Shown: in pieces, positions 1,612-9,032 of the stretch
Layout of the letters: each line of letters starts with the position of its first letter
Position numbering within the stretch: the first letter of the stretch is position 1
NCBI GenBank assembly: GCA_003140115.1
Contig: PLIQ01000110.1
Span: 12,065 to 21,096 of the forward strand
From: Actinomycetota bacterium
Lineage (GTDB): Bacteria; Actinomycetota; Actinomycetes; Streptosporangiales; Streptosporangiaceae
Reading direction: 5' to 3'
DNA length: 9,032 bases
The notes under the pieces: generated by a model
Seen by the model: only the letters and a program-made list of their open reading frames with translations
The model's database searches: none
Told to the model about the DNA's origin: nothing
Program-made: the position numbers and the translations under genes

Positions 1612-1980
1612 TTACGGCGTGTGGCTGAGGATCCGGTCGATCGCCTGCGCCGACAGGTCGGACTTGACCAAGAACCCGGCCGCCGGGCTCTCGGCGATCA
1701 GCTCCGCATAATCGGCTTCGGCCCGCGCCGAGATCAAGATCACCTCAGCGCCGCCGGCCTGCCCATCCTGGGCCAGCAGCCGGGCCAGATCAAAGCCGCT
1801 CTCCTCCCGCAGCCCGATGTCGACCAGGATGACGTCCGGCCGCAGCGCGCCGGCCAGCCGCAGCGCCTCGGCGCTGTTCGAGGCCGTGCCCAGCACCGTC
1901 ATGCCTTCTCGCTCCAGCAACACGCTCGCCGCCTTGAGGAAGGCGTCGCTGTCATCAACGAGCAGGCACCGTATCGACAC
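1612..1980 (-). CDS. Stand-alone receiver-domain response regulator (CheY-like)
   Basis: A 122-residue protein that is a single phospho-receiver domain with no output domain. All receiver landmarks are present: acidic pair D9-D10 in LLVDD, phospho-acceptor D54 in VILVD, S84 in ILISA and K106 in FLVK. It should take a phosphoryl group from a histidine kinase and signal by protein-protein contact; the partner is unknown. The GTG at 1980 is chosen because it places the first beta strand (SIRCLLVDD) at the N-terminus. An upstream in-frame extension to 2097 adds about 39 residues of no recognisable character. No good Shine-Dalgarno precedes the GTG. A TATACC element at 2001-1996 could be a -10 box giving a near-leaderless mRNA, but no -35 is convincing. 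It lies 120 nt after the HemA-HemC chimera and 216 nt before poxB. Confidence 0.85.
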   Translation of the reverse strand: MSIRCLLVDDSDAFLKAASVLLEREGMTVLGTASNSAEALRLAGALRPDVILVDIGLREESGFDLARLLAQDGQAGGAEVILISARAEADYAELIAESPAAGFLVKSDLSAQAIDRILSHTP

Positions 1981-2100
1981 GCGCTCATGGTGCCAGGTAT
2001 ACCGAGCGGTCGCATTGCGGCTAGCAGGAATACCGTCGTGGCGCGTCGAGGCTCCCGTCGGAGTCGGACCGGACAACCTGACCAGTGGGGTGGACATGTA

Positions 2101-3297
2101 TTAGGTGCCGCCGTTCGTGGTCGCGATCAGGACAGAGGATTGAGAGCGGTAGAGCAGCGCGGCGCCGCCGTGCTGCAGCAGTCTCTGGGCCAGCCGGCGG
2201 CCGAGCGCGTCGCCGTCGCTGGCCGCACCGGTCATCTGGGCCCGGATCACCGAGGACCCGTCGGGGGCGGCGATGACGCCGGACAGGCGGATCACTGGTT
2301 CGGTGGTCAGCTCGGCGAGAGCGCCGACTGGGGTGCCGCAGCCGGCGCCGAGGGCGGCCAGGAAGGCGCGTTCGGCGGTGGCCACGGCCCGGGTAGACGG
2401 GTGGTCCAGGGTACGCAGCTGGGCCGCGGTGACCGGGTCGTCGGTGCGGCACTCGACGGCCAGCACGCCTTGCGCCGGGGCGGGCATCAGCAGCGAGGGG
2501 TGCAGGGGTGCGGCGGAGAACTGTTTGGCCCGGATGGTCGGCTGGTGCAGGACCTTGCGCAAGATGCGGTGGACGGTGGCCGCCGTCTCGGCCCGCTGGT
2601 CGGTGAGGTCGGGGAGCCGGTCGTGCAGGCGGGCCAGCTCGGCGTCGGCGAGCTGCCTGATCTGCGCGTGCATCGCGGCGATGACGGGCGCCGCGATCGT
2701 TTGGTCCTGCCGGGTGGTGTAAGCCGCGGCCTCGGCGGCGACGATCGCGCGGACCTGAGGGATCTGGCTCGGCATGGCCCGGCCGGCCAGGTGCCGGCCG
2801 AGGGCGACGAGCCCGCCCAGGTGCGCAGCGGCGAAATCCAGGCCAGCCCGGGCCAGCGAGATGCCTTCGGTGCTGATCGTGGTCTGGGTGCGGGCCCGTT
2901 TGCTGGCCCGCAGCGCCGCGTCCTTGATCTGGGCGACGATCTGGTCCTCACCGACGGCCATCGAATCCAGCCCGCACGCGACCGTAAACAAGTGCTCGAT
3001 CGCCGCGCCGCCGATCCGGACGCGGGCCAGCCGCCAGACCTGGCCGGCCGCAACCCGCCCATGGACGGCCAGGACGTCCGCGACCGCCCGGGCCACGGGT
3101 CCAGCGGGGCCGTGCGCGGCCGCGTAGATCTCGACCCGGTTGCAGGTCGACAAGACGGCCACCTCATCGACGGATGGCACGGCGCGCAACCGGGCTAGGA
3201 CACTGCCGCGTTGTTCGGGCGGAACAGTGAGCTTCTCGAGTACCTCCGCCGCAGCGCTCCGGTGGGAGACGCCGACGTTCAGGATCGTCATAGCCAC
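2101..3297 (-). CDS. Chimeric HemA-HemC protein: glutamyl-tRNA reductase lacking its NADPH domain, joined to C-terminal porphobilinogen deaminase
   Basis: One open frame of 398 residues with parts of two haem-pathway enzymes. Residues 3-126 match the glutamyl-tRNA reductase catalytic domain: GVSHRSA (9-15), STCNRVEIYA with nucleophile Cys52, and HLFTVACGLDSM with the conserved His102. About 20 residues expected after QIKDA (123-127) are missing. Residues 128-165 resume the family, but the whole NADPH-binding domain is absent. Residues 178-260 match the dimerisation region (VRAIV, RLPDL, HQPTIRAKQ). From about 266 it becomes HemC: PAPAQG at 272-277 (family PAPGQG), AVECR, and AGCGTPVGA with Cys320, where the dipyrromethane cofactor attaches in true deaminases. 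The first roughly 200 HemC residues, with the catalytic Asp of HSxKD, are absent. It cannot be a normal reductase or deaminase; Glu-tRNA binding or ester hydrolysis is conceivable. Start: GTG 3297 or ATG 3291; the ATG better fits the family N-terminus. Confidence 0.85.
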   Translation of the reverse strand: MAMTILNVGVSHRSAAAEVLEKLTVPPEQRGSVLARLRAVPSVDEVAVLSTCNRVEIYAAAHGPAGPVARAVADVLAVHGRVAAGQVWRLARVRIGGAAIEHLFTVACGLDSMAVGEDQIVAQIKDAALRASKRARTQTTISTEGISLARAGLDFAAAHLGGLVALGRHLAGRAMPSQIPQVRAIVAAEAAAYTTRQDQTIAAPVIAAMHAQIRQLADAELARLHDRLPDLTDQRAETAATVHRILRKVLHQPTIRAKQFSAAPLHPSLLMPAPAQGVLAVECRTDDPVTAAQLRTLDHPSTRAVATAERAFLAALGAGCGTPVGALAELTTEPVIRLSGVIAAPDGSSVIRAQMTGAASDGDALGRRLAQRLLQHGGAALLYRSQSSVLIATTNGGT

Positions 3298-3348: not shown

Positions 3349-3663
3349 TCAGCTCGCGAACGCCAGTGGTCGCAGGCTCGGAGCCGGGGTCGTTGACGGC
3401 GCCGGATAGACCATGCGGACCGTGGTCAGCGCCCAGCACATCCTGGCGGCCGCGGTGTCCGGGTGGTCACCGAACTCGGCGGCCGTCCGGGCGGCACAGC
3501 CGCTGCTCCCTAGCCGCAGCAGCGTGGTCGCGACGGCGCCGCGGACGTGGTCGGGCGAGGGCGCCACGGAAGGCTGCAGGGTCGAGGCGAACAGCGCCTC
3601 GGCCCGGACCGTCTCGGACGTGCCCGGCATCTCGCTTCGGGCCAGCGATGTCCTGTCCGCCAT
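3349..3663 (-). CDS. Small conserved-looking actinobacterial protein of unknown function
   Basis: A 104-residue soluble protein without signal peptide or membrane segment. It resembles a family of small actinomycete hypothetical proteins I recall with the pattern LFASxLQPS followed by GCAARxAxEFGDHPxxAxxRMxWA; here these lie at residues 24-32 and 55-78. The alternating predicted helices in 40-87 could form a small helix-turn-helix, but that is a guess. The ATG at 3663 is chosen because GAGG lies 8 nt upstream and the residues encoded before it, to 3783, look non-coding (R/P/W-rich). The last 17 residues are Pro/Ser-rich. It lies 51 nt before the HemA-HemC chimera on the same strand and may share its transcript. 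Function unknown. Confidence 0.7.
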   Translation of the reverse strand: MADRTSLARSEMPGTSETVRAEALFASTLQPSVAPSPDHVRGAVATTLLRLGSSGCAARTAAEFGDHPDTAAARMCWALTTVRMVYPAPSTTPAPSLRPLAFAS

Positions 3664-3798
3664 GGCTCTGGCCTCGCATCCTTCGACGTTTGCGGCTACT
3701 GGGTTCGCGCCGCATGTTGTCCAGCTTCGCGGTCGGGCCGGCTTATGTCTTCGCGGCCAGCCTCCAGCCCGGCTACCTGCCACCCGGAATAAGCGGCT

Positions 3799-6640: not shown

Positions 6641-6682
6641 AGACCTCATGACTCCACGGTGCGTCGGCAACCTTGGGGATCA

Positions 6683-6700
6683 CTGAATGGCCGCTGAATG
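6683..6700. promoter_or_regulatory. Tandem heptamer CTGAATG with 11-bp period: likely OmpR-family operator
   Basis: CTGAATG occurs exactly twice, at 6683-6689 and 6694-6700, separated by GCCG, giving an 11-bp repeat period (CATTCAG-N4-CATTCAG on the other strand). OmpR/PhoB-family dimers bind head-to-tail to direct repeats of about 11 bp, for example the 7-bp repeats with 4-bp gaps of Streptomyces PhoP boxes. It lies 34-60 nt upstream of the regulator start and within the divergent region shared with the GAF kinase. Autoregulation by the adjacent regulator is the simplest reading. Confidence 0.55.
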
Positions 6701-6728
6701 CGCCCTCCAGCCCGCCAGAGCGCGCTGC

Positions 6729-6738
6729 CCCGTACGGG
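6729..6738. promoter_or_regulatory. 10-bp palindrome in the divergent intergenic region
   Basis: CCCGTACGGG is a perfect palindrome, flanked by GCT on one side and AGC on the other with one unpaired base. It lies 76 nt upstream of the GAF kinase start and about 90 nt from the OmpR-type regulator start. It could be a dimeric operator for either direction, or chance in GC-rich DNA. Confidence 0.3.
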
Positions 6739-6801
6739 AGCAACCAGGCCACGTCGAGCTGCGAGGGAACAGCCCCCTACCGGCCCACCGGGCATCGGGC
6801 T

Positions 6802-6807
6802 ACCGTC
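6802..6807 (+). promoter_or_regulatory. Possible -10 box giving a leaderless mRNA for the GAF kinase
   Basis: TACCGT fits the actinomycete TAnnnT -10 pattern and ends 6 nt before the base preceding ATG 6814, so transcription could begin at or very near the A of the start codon. No Shine-Dalgarno precedes that ATG, which agrees with a leaderless start. No convincing -35 is seen. Confidence 0.3.
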
Positions 6808-6813
6808 AGCGTT

Positions 6814-9032
6814 ATGAACGCGCCAGACTCCGGCGCCGATAGGGGCCAGGCCGCTGACGCGGGGGAGGGCCGTGGTCTACCCGGCCAGGCACGGCTCCGT
6901 CAGCTCGCCAATGAGCAGGCTGCACTGCGGCGCGTGGCCACGCTGGTAGCCAAGGGCGCCCGGCCGGACGAGGTGTTCACTGCCGTCGCGGATGAGCTCG
7001 CGCGGCTGATCGGCGCCGAGGCGTCGTTCGTCTCCAGCGTCGATCACCAACCGGAGGAAGGCGCAGAGCTCAAAGGGGCGATCACCGTCGTAGGATCCTA
7101 CGGCCGGGTCAGTGATGAAGTACCGGTTGGCTTCCGGATCGGGCTGCAGCCCGGGATGATTCACGCGGATGTCCTGCGAACCGGGCTCCCGGCTCGGATC
7201 AACGGCGAACCGCTGGCGACCGGCCCGTTCGGTGCCATCGTCGGCAGGCTGGGCCTACGGGCCGCGGTGGCTACGCCCATCGTGGTCGGGGGACGCCACT
7301 GGGGCGTGACGTTGGCCGCGACCTCACGCGAGGACTTCGCGGTCGGCACGGAGTCGCAGATGGCGGAGTTCATGGAGCTTGCCGGGATGGCGATCGCCAA
7401 CGCTCGAGCCGAGGAGGAACTGCGCGAACTCGCCGACACCCAGGCGGCCCTGCGCCGCCTGGCTACCTTGGTCGCCCAGGGCGAGCCGCCCGAGGCGATG
7501 TTCGCGGCCGCGACCCGGGAGGCGCTGCAGTACTTCGGCAGCGGCATCGCCGCGATGATCCGATACGAGCCGGACGGGACGACGACGCTGCTCGCCTACG
7601 AAGGCTCGGCGGGCCCGGACCTGCGGGCCGGCGAACGCCGGGAGGGCTATCCGCCGGACGGGCTGACCGCGGTCGTGCGGCGGACCGGCCAGGCCGCCCG
7701 GGTCGAGGACTACCGTGACATCCCGGGCGGCGAACTTTATCTCCGCGCGGGGCTGCAGTCCGGGGTCGGCACGCCTATCCACGTCGACGGCCGGCTGTGG
7801 GGGATGATCGCGGTCGGGTCCGCGGCGGGACCGCTGCCGCCCGGCACCGAGCAGCGGATGAGCGAGTTCACTGACCTCGTGGCCACCGCGGTCGCGAACG
7901 CGCAGAACCGCAGCGCGCTGGAAGCGAGCCGGGACGAGCTCACCCGCCTGCTGGCCGAGCAGGCCGCGCTGCGCCGGGTGGCCACGCTGGTCGCCCGCGG
8001 AATCGACCCGGCCGAGATCTTCTCGGCGGTCGCCGGAGAGTTCGGCCGCCTGCTTGACGCGGACAACGCTGGCATCAGCCGTTTCGATCCGGATGGGTCC
8101 TCGGTCGTGATCGTCGGCAGCGTCGGGCCGGACGCGGCCACGGTGCCGATCGGGACGCGCGTGCGAATCCCCGACTACTTTGCCCCGGGGGTGGTATGGC
8201 GGACCGGTCGCTCGGCTCAGGTCGACGAGGACGTGTGGGACACACTGCCGGGCCCGGCCGCCGACCGCCTGCGCATGCTGGGAATTCGCTCGCAGGTGGC
8301 GAGCCCGATCATCGTCGAGAGCCACCTGTGGGGCGTGATTACCGTATCGTCCAGGCGAGGGCCGTTTCCTGCTGACGCCGTCGACCGCCTGGCGGACTTC
8401 ACCGAACTCCTCGCCACGGCCATCGGGAACGCCGAGAGCCGCGGCGAGCTGGCCGCCTCGCGGGCGCGGGTCGTGGCGGCCGCGGATGCGGCCCGTCGGC
8501 GGATCGAGCGGGATCTGCACGACGGGACCCAGCAGCGCCTGGTCTCCCTTGGCCTGGAGCTTCGCCTCGCGCAGTCCATGGTGCCTGCCGGGCTGCCCGA
8601 GCTCGAGACGGAGGTCGGCCGGGTCGCGGACGAGCTCGGCGGGGTGGTGGAGGACCTGCGGGAGATCGCCCGCGGCATCCACCCGGCGATCTTGTCCGAG
8701 GGCGGGCTAGGGCCGGCCCTGCGCACGCTGGCCCGCCGGGCCGCGGTCGCGGTCGAGCTCGAGGTGGCCGGGATTACACGGCTGCCGGAGGCGGTCGAGG
8801 TGGCGGCGTATTACGTCGTCTCCGAGGCGCTCACCAACGCGACCAAGTATGCGAACGCCTCGGTCGTGAGTGTCGCGGTCGAGGAACGGGCCGGCGGCCT
8901 GCACCTGTCGGTTCGTGACGACGGCGCGGGCGGCGCCGATCCCGCCCGCGGCTCGGGCCTGATCGGCCTCCGCGACCGGGCCGAAGCACTGGGCGGATCG
9001 CTCGAGGTCAGCAGCCCTCCTGGCCACGGGAC
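6814..9032 (+). CDS. Triple-GAF sensor histidine kinase (HisKA_3/DesK-NarX type), C-terminus cut by window edge
   Basis: The frame is open to the window edge: 739 complete codons, probably lacking only the last few residues. It is soluble, with no membrane helix. Three GAF-like modules lie at about 34-195, 210-367 and 383-548. Each opens with the same helix, close to QAALRRVATLVARG, then a domain ending in a W-G-(V/M) strand and a long linking helix. The HisKA_3 dimerisation helix carries phospho-acceptor His569 in RDLHDGTQQRLV. The ATPase has the N-box EALTNATKYA (N675), DDGAGG (702-707) and GSGLIGLRDRA (713-723). This class normally phosphorylates NarL/LuxR-type regulators, so the NarL-type or the receiver-only protein in this window are candidate partners, alongside any gene beyond the right edge. 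GAF modules bind small molecules or cofactors; I see no diagnostic ligand motif. ATG 6814 has no Shine-Dalgarno. Transcribed divergently from the OmpR-type system. Confidence 0.93.
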   Translation, partial: MNAPDSGADRGQAADAGEGRGLPGQARLRQLANEQAALRRVATLVAKGARPDEVFTAVADELARLIGAEASFVSSVDHQPEEGAELKGAITVVGSYGRVSDEVPVGFRIGLQPGMIHADVLRTGLPARINGEPLATGPFGAIVGRLGLRAAVATPIVVGGRHWGVTLAATSREDFAVGTESQMAEFMELAGMAIANARAEEELRELADTQAALRRLATLVAQGEPPEAMFAAATREALQYFGSGIAAMIRYEPDGTTTLLAYEGSAGPDLRAGERREGYPPDGLTAVVRRTGQAARVEDYRDIPGGELYLRAGLQSGVGTPIHVDGRLWGMIAVGSAAGPLPPGTEQRMSEFTDLVATAVANAQNRSALEASRDELTRLLAEQAALRRVATLVARGIDPAEIFSAVAGEFGRLLDADNAGISRFDPDGSSVVIVGSVGPDAATVPIGTRVRIPDYFAPGVVWRTGRSAQVDEDVWDTLPGPAADRLRMLGIRSQVASPIIVESHLWGVITVSSRRGPFPADAVDRLADFTELLATAIGNAESRGELAASRARVVAAADAARRRIERDLHDGTQQRLVSLGLELRLAQSMVPAGLPELETEVGRVADELGGVVEDLREIARGIHPAILSEGGLGPALRTLARRAAVAVELEVAGITRLPEAVEVAAYYVVSEALTNATKYANASVVSVAVEERAGGLHLSVRDDGAGGADPARGSGLIGLRDRAEALGGSLEVSSPPGHG
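6913..8001 (+). repeat. Three diverged tandem GAF repeats inside the kinase gene
   Basis: The module-opening helix is encoded at 6913-6957, 7438-7482 and 7957-8001, at 525 and 519 nt intervals. Copies 1 and 3 remain similar at DNA level: both start GAGCAGGC and share an uninterrupted GTGGCCACGCTGGT. Copy 2 is more diverged. The pattern implies duplication of a unit of about 173-175 residues. Confidence 0.7.

What the first reader, a model, noticed from the sequence alone, without database searches (positions are those of the whole stretch)
2101..3297. Uninterrupted HemA-HemC chimera lacking both catalytic cofactor halves
Seen: one frame joins the glutamyl-tRNA reductase catalytic domain (Cys52, His102), its dimerisation region and the C-terminal part of porphobilinogen deaminase (Cys320). 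The NADPH domain, about 20 residues after QIKDA, and the N-terminal ~200 deaminase residues are missing. Known: hemA and hemC are often adjacent in actinomycetes, and reductase without NADPH can still hydrolyse Glu-tRNA. Inference: successive deletions collapsed a duplicate hemA-hemC pair, yet every join is in frame with no stop. That hints the product is kept, perhaps as a Glu-tRNA-binding or hydrolysing protein, a regulator of haem synthesis, or an accessory-pathway enzyme.
Basis: partly seen in the sequence, partly recalled or inferred. Interest (0 to 1): 0.8.

Follow-up and report, generated by a model that had tools for sequence, protein, structure and literature searches.

The report
Collapsed spare haem-gene pair
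A soil-type bacterium's spare copies of two haem-making genes seem to have shrunk, by deletions, into one short reading frame that probably no longer makes haem; that the frame stayed open is what deletions in such genes tend to give and is not in itself a sign of a new function.

Summary
One open 398-aa frame (minus strand, 2101-3297) joins the catalytic and dimerisation domains of glutamyl-tRNA reductase (HemA) to domain 3 of porphobilinogen deaminase (HemC). Missing are 20 residues of the catalytic domain, the NADPH domain (~121 residues), the last ~24 HemA residues and the first ~183-188 HemC residues. One correction: the HemC cofactor cysteine is kept (Cys320 = E. coli Cys242).

It is unlikely to be an assembly accident: a protein with the same joins and one different residue is held (P0001, cluster of 19 sequences). 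Eight related actinomycete genomes each carry a primary hemA and hemC plus a second hemA2 (hemC2 found in four). The window is a collapsed form of such a second pair. Three other hemA2-hemC2 fusions exist in close relatives; two contain frameshifted stretches.

dN/dS on the window branch is low (0.14, as in intact genes), so the collapse is recent or the product is still selected; the data cannot decide. Best reading: a young deletion relic of a redundant pair.

The parts
2101..3297 (-). Chimeric hemA2-hemC2 ORF, 398 aa (stop included); probable start ATG at 3289-3291
2875..3276 (-). GlutR_N catalytic domain (residues 8-141), 20 residues missing inside; Cys52 at 3142-3144, His102 at 2992-2994
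   Evidence: (Pfam PF05201), alignment
2917..2925 (-). Join 1: 60-bp deletion QIK|DAAL; both edges encode DAA in intact relatives' proteins (KDAAR / IDAAL)
2803..2812 (-). Join 2: NADPH (Rossmann) domain deleted, HLGGL|VALGRHLAG
2515..2757 (-). GlutR_dimer domain (residues 181-261)
   Evidence: PF00745
2503..2516 (-). Join 3: hemA2 tail (24 residues) and hemC2 N-terminal 183-188 residues deleted, RAKQFSA|APLHPSLLMPAPAQG
2152..2514 (-). Porphobilinogen deaminase part (residues 262-382), domain 3 with Cys320 (2338-2340) = E. coli Cys242
1612..2097 (-). Receiver-only response regulator; a relative (71% identical) follows hemC2 in L006

Best explanation
The ORF is a young deletion relic of an accessory hemA2-hemC2 pair. 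Shown: related genomes have a primary hemA and hemC and a second hemA2 (half of them with hemC2 found); the window ORF corresponds to such a second pair with three large and one or two small in-frame losses; sister lineages carry other deletion and frameshift states. Inferred: the deletions arose by slippage or recombination between short direct repeats, which in GC-rich, codon-biased genes are mostly in phase, so the reading frame survives by default. The product should be neither a reductase (no NADPH domain) nor a deaminase (no domains 1-2) and is most likely without function, tolerated because primary genes supply haem. Whether the window's own genome holds a primary hemA and hemC could not be seen.
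For: Second hemA2 plus primary hemA and hemC in 8 of 8 related genomes, hemC2 in 4 of 8 (the eight were chosen because their loci matched best, and several hemA2 copies are cut by contig ends). In three of them (L002, L003, L007) no hemC2 is found on the contig after hemA2, so hemC2 looks dispensable. Order hemA2-hemC2-receiver in L006 matches hemAC-receiver in the window. Of 158 distinct hemA-type proteins in the capped lists of two searches, 144 are 415-465 aa and 14 are not: P0001 and P0002 (window type), the fusions P0020, P0076, P0121, and P0085, P0086, P0124, P0125, P0132, P0135, P0147, P0155, P0158, some of which may be cut by contig ends. Frameshifted stretches: P0121 residues 283-395 (64% over 106 aa to a shifted frame, no true-frame match), P0020 tail (62% over 42), P0132 tail (74% over 35), P0155 tail (73% over 66), and P0023 in the NADPH domain (54% over 65). 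Repeat phase: 76% of 221 repeats of 8 bp or more inside four hemA2 genes, 60% of 172 between hemA2 and hemC2 in two loci. N-domain tree: window, P0001 and P0002 form one clade (0.99); P0020 groups with intact P0003 (0.79), P0076 with P0121 (0.74), nearest intact P0004.
Against: No stop or frameshift in the window ORF or in P0001. omega on the window branch is 0.14 (grid interval 0.10-0.20), the same as the background 0.135; omega = 1 is 34 log units worse. The hemC part breaks 0 of 43 columns that are 98% conserved, the hemA part 1 of 98. Residues 1-100 and about 300-380 are predicted as confident units. P0001 (cluster of 19 sequences, members not seen) suggests that the allele persists. P0076 shows no frameshift.
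Confidence: 0.75

Rival explanations
1. A retained new protein: the Glu-tRNA-binding half of HemA joined to the cofactor-bearing domain of HemC acts as a regulator, for example by binding or deacylating Glu-tRNA, by forming inactive mixed dimers with HemA, or by binding porphobilinogen through Cys320.
For: Open frame, constraint on the surviving residues, kept Cys52, His102 and Cys320, two confident predicted units, P0001 with the same joins, receiver regulator directly downstream.
Against: Constraint can be inherited from before a recent collapse; no diverged orthologue with these joins was found; the 20 missing residues span two helices of the catalytic domain (115-131 and 137-156 in the intact model, itself of low confidence there); two of three sister fusions are frameshifted and all keep different parts.
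Confidence: 0.17
2. Assembly or base-calling artefact: reads of several hemA2/hemC2 alleles were collapsed into a false join.
For: No genome is held for the window, which fits a metagenome contig; P0002 shares the two hemA deletions but differs at 12 of the first 31 residues and at only two later ones, which could be a mis-joined contig.
Against: P0001 (one residue different, 19 member sequences) has all the same joins; the neighbouring frames are open and match their families.
Confidence: 0.03
3. A working HemA-HemC fusion enzyme that complements missing parts in trans with full-length subunits.
For: hemA2 and hemC2 overlap by ATGA in L004-L006; full hemC2-receiver fusions exist (P0179, 31 members).
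Against: Neither catalytic centre is complete; the different fusions keep different parts.
Confidence: 0.03

Closest known systems
Glutamyl-tRNA reductase (HemA/GluTR; PF05201 + PF01488 + PF00745)
   Same: N-terminal catalytic domain with Cys52 and His102, and dimerisation domain
   Different: No NADPH domain; 20 residues of the catalytic domain missing; NCBIfam hemA scores under cut-off (202 against 429 bits)
Hydroxymethylbilane synthase / porphobilinogen deaminase (HemC)
   Same: Domain 3 with the cofactor cysteine; closest solved chains by sequence 1ypn, 1ah5, 1pda; also found by fold
   Different: First 183-188 residues (domains 1 and 2, with the catalytic Asp by recall) absent; 81.7 bits against cut-off 164
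Other hemA2-hemC2 fusion proteins in sequence databases (P0020, P0076, P0121)
   Same: Same parent pair, close relatives
   Different: Different joins; P0020 and P0121 contain frameshifted stretches, P0076 does not
Separate accessory hemA2 and hemC2 genes, e.g. L004, L005, L006
   Same: Same genes in the same order; receiver regulator after hemC2 in L006
   Different: Separate, overlapping genes (hemA2 of L006 cut by the contig end); catalase on the same contig

Membership tests
Glutamyl-tRNA reductase | Catalytic Cys and His of the N-terminal domain | tested here: met
   Cys52 in STCNR and His102 present
Glutamyl-tRNA reductase | NADPH-binding Rossmann domain | tested here: not met
   No PF01488 match; 121-132 residues absent against three intact relatives
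Glutamyl-tRNA reductase | Dimerisation domain | tested here: met
   PF00745 53.2 bits over cut-off 22.9
Glutamyl-tRNA reductase | Full-length family model above curated cut-off | tested here: not met
   NF000744 202 of 429 bits; TIGR01035 165.6 of 209.55
Porphobilinogen deaminase | Cofactor-attachment cysteine in domain 3 | tested here: met
   Cys320 = E. coli 242 (role from PMC7242693 passages)
Porphobilinogen deaminase | Domains 1 and 2 | tested here: not met
   Only profile positions 177-204 of 207 of PF01379 matched, under its cut-off; TIGR00212 81.7 of 164 bits
Pseudogene / deletion relic | Loss of parts needed for the parental activities | tested here: met
Pseudogene / deletion relic | Redundancy with other copies in the same genome | tested here: inconclusive
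   Met in 8 of 8 relatives; the window's own genome is not held
Pseudogene / deletion relic | Stops or frameshifts in the gene itself | tested here: not met
   Frame open; no shifted-frame match apart from its own DNA
Pseudogene / deletion relic | Relaxed selection after the loss | tested here: inconclusive
   Window branch omega 0.14, interval 0.10-0.20; the branch covers time before the loss too
Pseudogene / deletion relic | No expression or phenotype | not testable with these tools
   needs RNA, protein or a mutant

The most novel reading that the evidence does not exclude
The collapsed gene encodes a kept, non-enzymatic tetrapyrrole-pathway regulator: a Glu-tRNA-binding HemA half joined to the dipyrromethane-bearing HemC domain, reading Glu-tRNA at one end and porphobilinogen at the other, encoded next to a receiver-only response regulator; recurrent hemA2-hemC2 fusion in sister lineages would then be convergent.
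Probability: 0.1. Interest if true: 0.7.

Novelty: new member of a known kind. Interest (0 to 1): 0.32.

Why it matters
It is a clear case of how a dispensable gene pair in a GC-rich genome can decay without losing its reading frame: codon bias puts most direct repeats in phase, so repeat-mediated deletions leave open, annotated 'fusion proteins'. Fusion catalogues built from metagenome ORFs may hold more such relics (inference from this one family). If the chimera is kept after all, it would link the first dedicated step of haem synthesis with porphobilinogen polymerisation in one regulator.

Tried and rejected
In-frame joins as evidence of selection: set aside after counting repeat phase. 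The first count pooled two Nocardia hemA genes, counted overlapping words and, across the pair, used coordinate phase without regard to the hemA/hemC frame change (36-59% in phase at 8-10 bp), with maximal repeats and codon phase, replaces it. The true ancestor's repeats are unknown.

Conserved-site test: the first run counted positions in a misaligned tail (13 violations). Restricted to residues 3-259 and without the frameshifted P0023 (143 rows) it gives 9 of 172 columns at 90%, 7 of 142 at 95% (7 of 143 intact proteins have as many) and 1 of 98 at 98%. Against an 'as good as intact' view: the hemA part differs from consensus at 43 columns (median of intact 26; 27 of 143 have as many), and the hemC part at 31 of 133, equal to the most divergent of 103 intact proteins (median 19).

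Branch model: the free-omega fit ended 0.04 log units below the one-omega fit, an optimiser tolerance; the grid is used. By part, window omega is 0.18 (N domain, background 0.119), 0.12 (dimer domain) and 0.10 (hemC). Tree support is weak (41, 56, 57) except T4-T5 (100). T3 and T8 were left out of the tree.

Structure: alignments A2, A4 and A6 were poor or misaligned and not used. A5, used for the chimera, misplaces the stretch after join 1, and the intact control is also low there (pLDDT 45-67 for residues 101-170), so low confidence between the two units proves nothing.

Plasmids: 0 of 72,556 records cover 80% or more of the chimera; 89 have a partial match. Viral contigs: no relative. Genomes: 56 loci (exact-peptide patterns, so close relatives only). 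Among all 144 loci held, 106 have both a hemA and a hemC part; none has them in one stop-free frame. Samples of 394 and 297 genomes around G006 and G005 (E at most 1e-60, few candidates scored per genome, lists cut) show hemA2 at 69-79% identity only in G006 and G005; the next best copies are at 43-47% (G462, G523 and G476, each with a second match, head that list).

Literature: five searches; no title or abstract start listed names a HemA-HemC fusion. Two papers were seen as passages only. That is no proof of absence.

Full report
What is there. The window ORF 2101-3297 on the minus strand encodes 398 aa without a stop. Pfam finds GlutR_N, GlutR_dimer and Porphobil_deamC in that order, plus a scrap of the PBGD N-terminal model; NCBIfam scores hemA and hemC models below their cut-offs. 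Against the PDB the C-terminal part aligns with E. coli PBGD from residue 184, placing Cys320 on residue 242, to which the dipyrromethane cofactor is attached (PMC7242693, passages). So the chimera keeps the HemC cofactor site and loses domains 1-2; from HemA it loses 20 residues of the catalytic domain, the NADPH domain (121-132 residues) and the last 24 residues.

It is probably a real allele. P0001 (396 aa, cluster of 19 sequences whose members were not seen, one contig listed) has every join and one different residue. P0002 (231 aa, partial) has the two hemA deletions, differs at 12 of the first 31 residues and at two later ones.

Where it comes from. A pattern scan of the species-genome collection found close relatives in eight actinomycete MAGs (L001-L008). 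All eight carry a primary hemA and hemC (about 32-50% identical to the window parts) and a second hemA2 (about 60-77%); four carry hemC2 (68-80%). Some hemA2 copies are cut by contig ends (G001, G006, G007, G008). In L004-L006 hemA2 and hemC2 overlap by ATGA, and in L006 a receiver regulator follows, as in the window. Catalase lies on the same contig in L002, L004, L005, L006 and L008, aquaporin in L005, L006 and L008 (upstream of hemA2 in L008), uroporphyrinogen decarboxylase upstream in L004, cytochrome bd downstream in L003. The parent pair is therefore perhaps a haem supply linked to redox stress (inference). It looks rare: among matches listed for 394 and 297 sampled genomes only G006 and G005, the centres of the samples, had it at this similarity.

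Decay around it. Two searches, each listing its best 120, gave 158 distinct hemA-type proteins; 144 are 415-465 aa, 14 are not. Among the 14 are three other hemA2-hemC2 fusions with other joins (P0020, P0076, P0121) and hemA2 proteins missing the NADPH part (P0086) or pieces of the dimerisation part (P0124, P0147). Comparing the 278 held proteins with shifted frames of 13 segments, 6 match. On exact stretches five are convincing (P0020, P0023, P0121, P0132, P0155); P0229 is weak and not counted. In L002, L003 and L007 no hemC2 follows hemA2 on the contig.

Does the open frame mean selection? Maximal direct repeats inside four hemA2 genes are in phase in 60% (6 bp or more, 1861), 76% (8 bp or more, 221) and 86% (9 bp or more, 63) of cases; repeats from hemA2 into hemC2 in two loci would give in-frame fusion in 53-73%. 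With the 8-bp figures three in-frame joins have a chance of about 0.35. Whether each join lay between repeats is only indirectly visible: join 1 is bordered by DAA on both sides in intact relatives' proteins, but DNA of the nearest intact gene is not held. The small in-frame losses (one Q, about four residues) are not in this estimate.

Constraint. A branch model on concatenated codons (window and six relatives) gives omega 0.14 for the window (0.10-0.20), 0.12-0.14 for four other terminal branches, background 0.135; neutrality over the whole branch is rejected by 34 log units. If the gene drifted freely after the collapse, that phase can fill only about 8% of the branch (crude mix: (0.20-0.135)/(1-0.135)). 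Strictly conserved columns agree: hemC part 0 of 43, hemA part 1 of 98 at 98%. Looser measures show a rather diverged copy: 7 of 142 breaks at 95% in the hemA part (7 of 143 intact proteins have as many), and 31 of 133 differences from consensus in the hemC part, the top of the intact range. So the collapse is recent or the product is still selected.

Fold. The intact HemA2 model (P0003, mean pLDDT 72) places the 20 missing residues across two helices (115-131, 137-156), with low confidence there. The chimera model (mean pLDDT 67, pTM 0.38) is confident for residues 1-100 and about 300-380 and poor between; Foldseek returns GluTR and PBGD chains. The alignment fault after join 1 and the low control limit this.

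Conclusion. The simplest account is a young in-frame deletion relic of a redundant accessory hemA2-hemC2 pair. A retained regulator is possible and is not excluded by any test here.

Noticed in passing
P0179 (483 aa, 31 members) and P0229 (501 aa): Full-length HemC2 read through into the receiver-only response regulator that follows hemC2, over a linker of roughly 50-60 residues that resembles the stretch between the two genes in L006; a possible HemC-receiver protein.
   Followed up: partly
L002, L004, L005, L006, L008, L003: Catalase lies on the hemA2/hemC2 contig in five of eight genomes, aquaporin in three, uroporphyrinogen decarboxylase in L004, cytochrome bd in L003: perhaps a stress-linked haem branch.
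   Followed up: partly
window 6652-9030 (+), L069, L065: A histidine kinase with three GAF domains lies near hemA2 in the window and in two related genomes; such GAF kinases can be haem sensors (recalled).
   Followed up: no
P0023 (428 aa): A full-length-looking HemA2 whose NADPH-domain glycine motif is read in a shifted frame and then returns to frame.
   Followed up: partly
window 3349-3783 (-): Small ORF upstream of the chimera without Pfam match and without a hit in the 28 related loci searched.
   Followed up: partly
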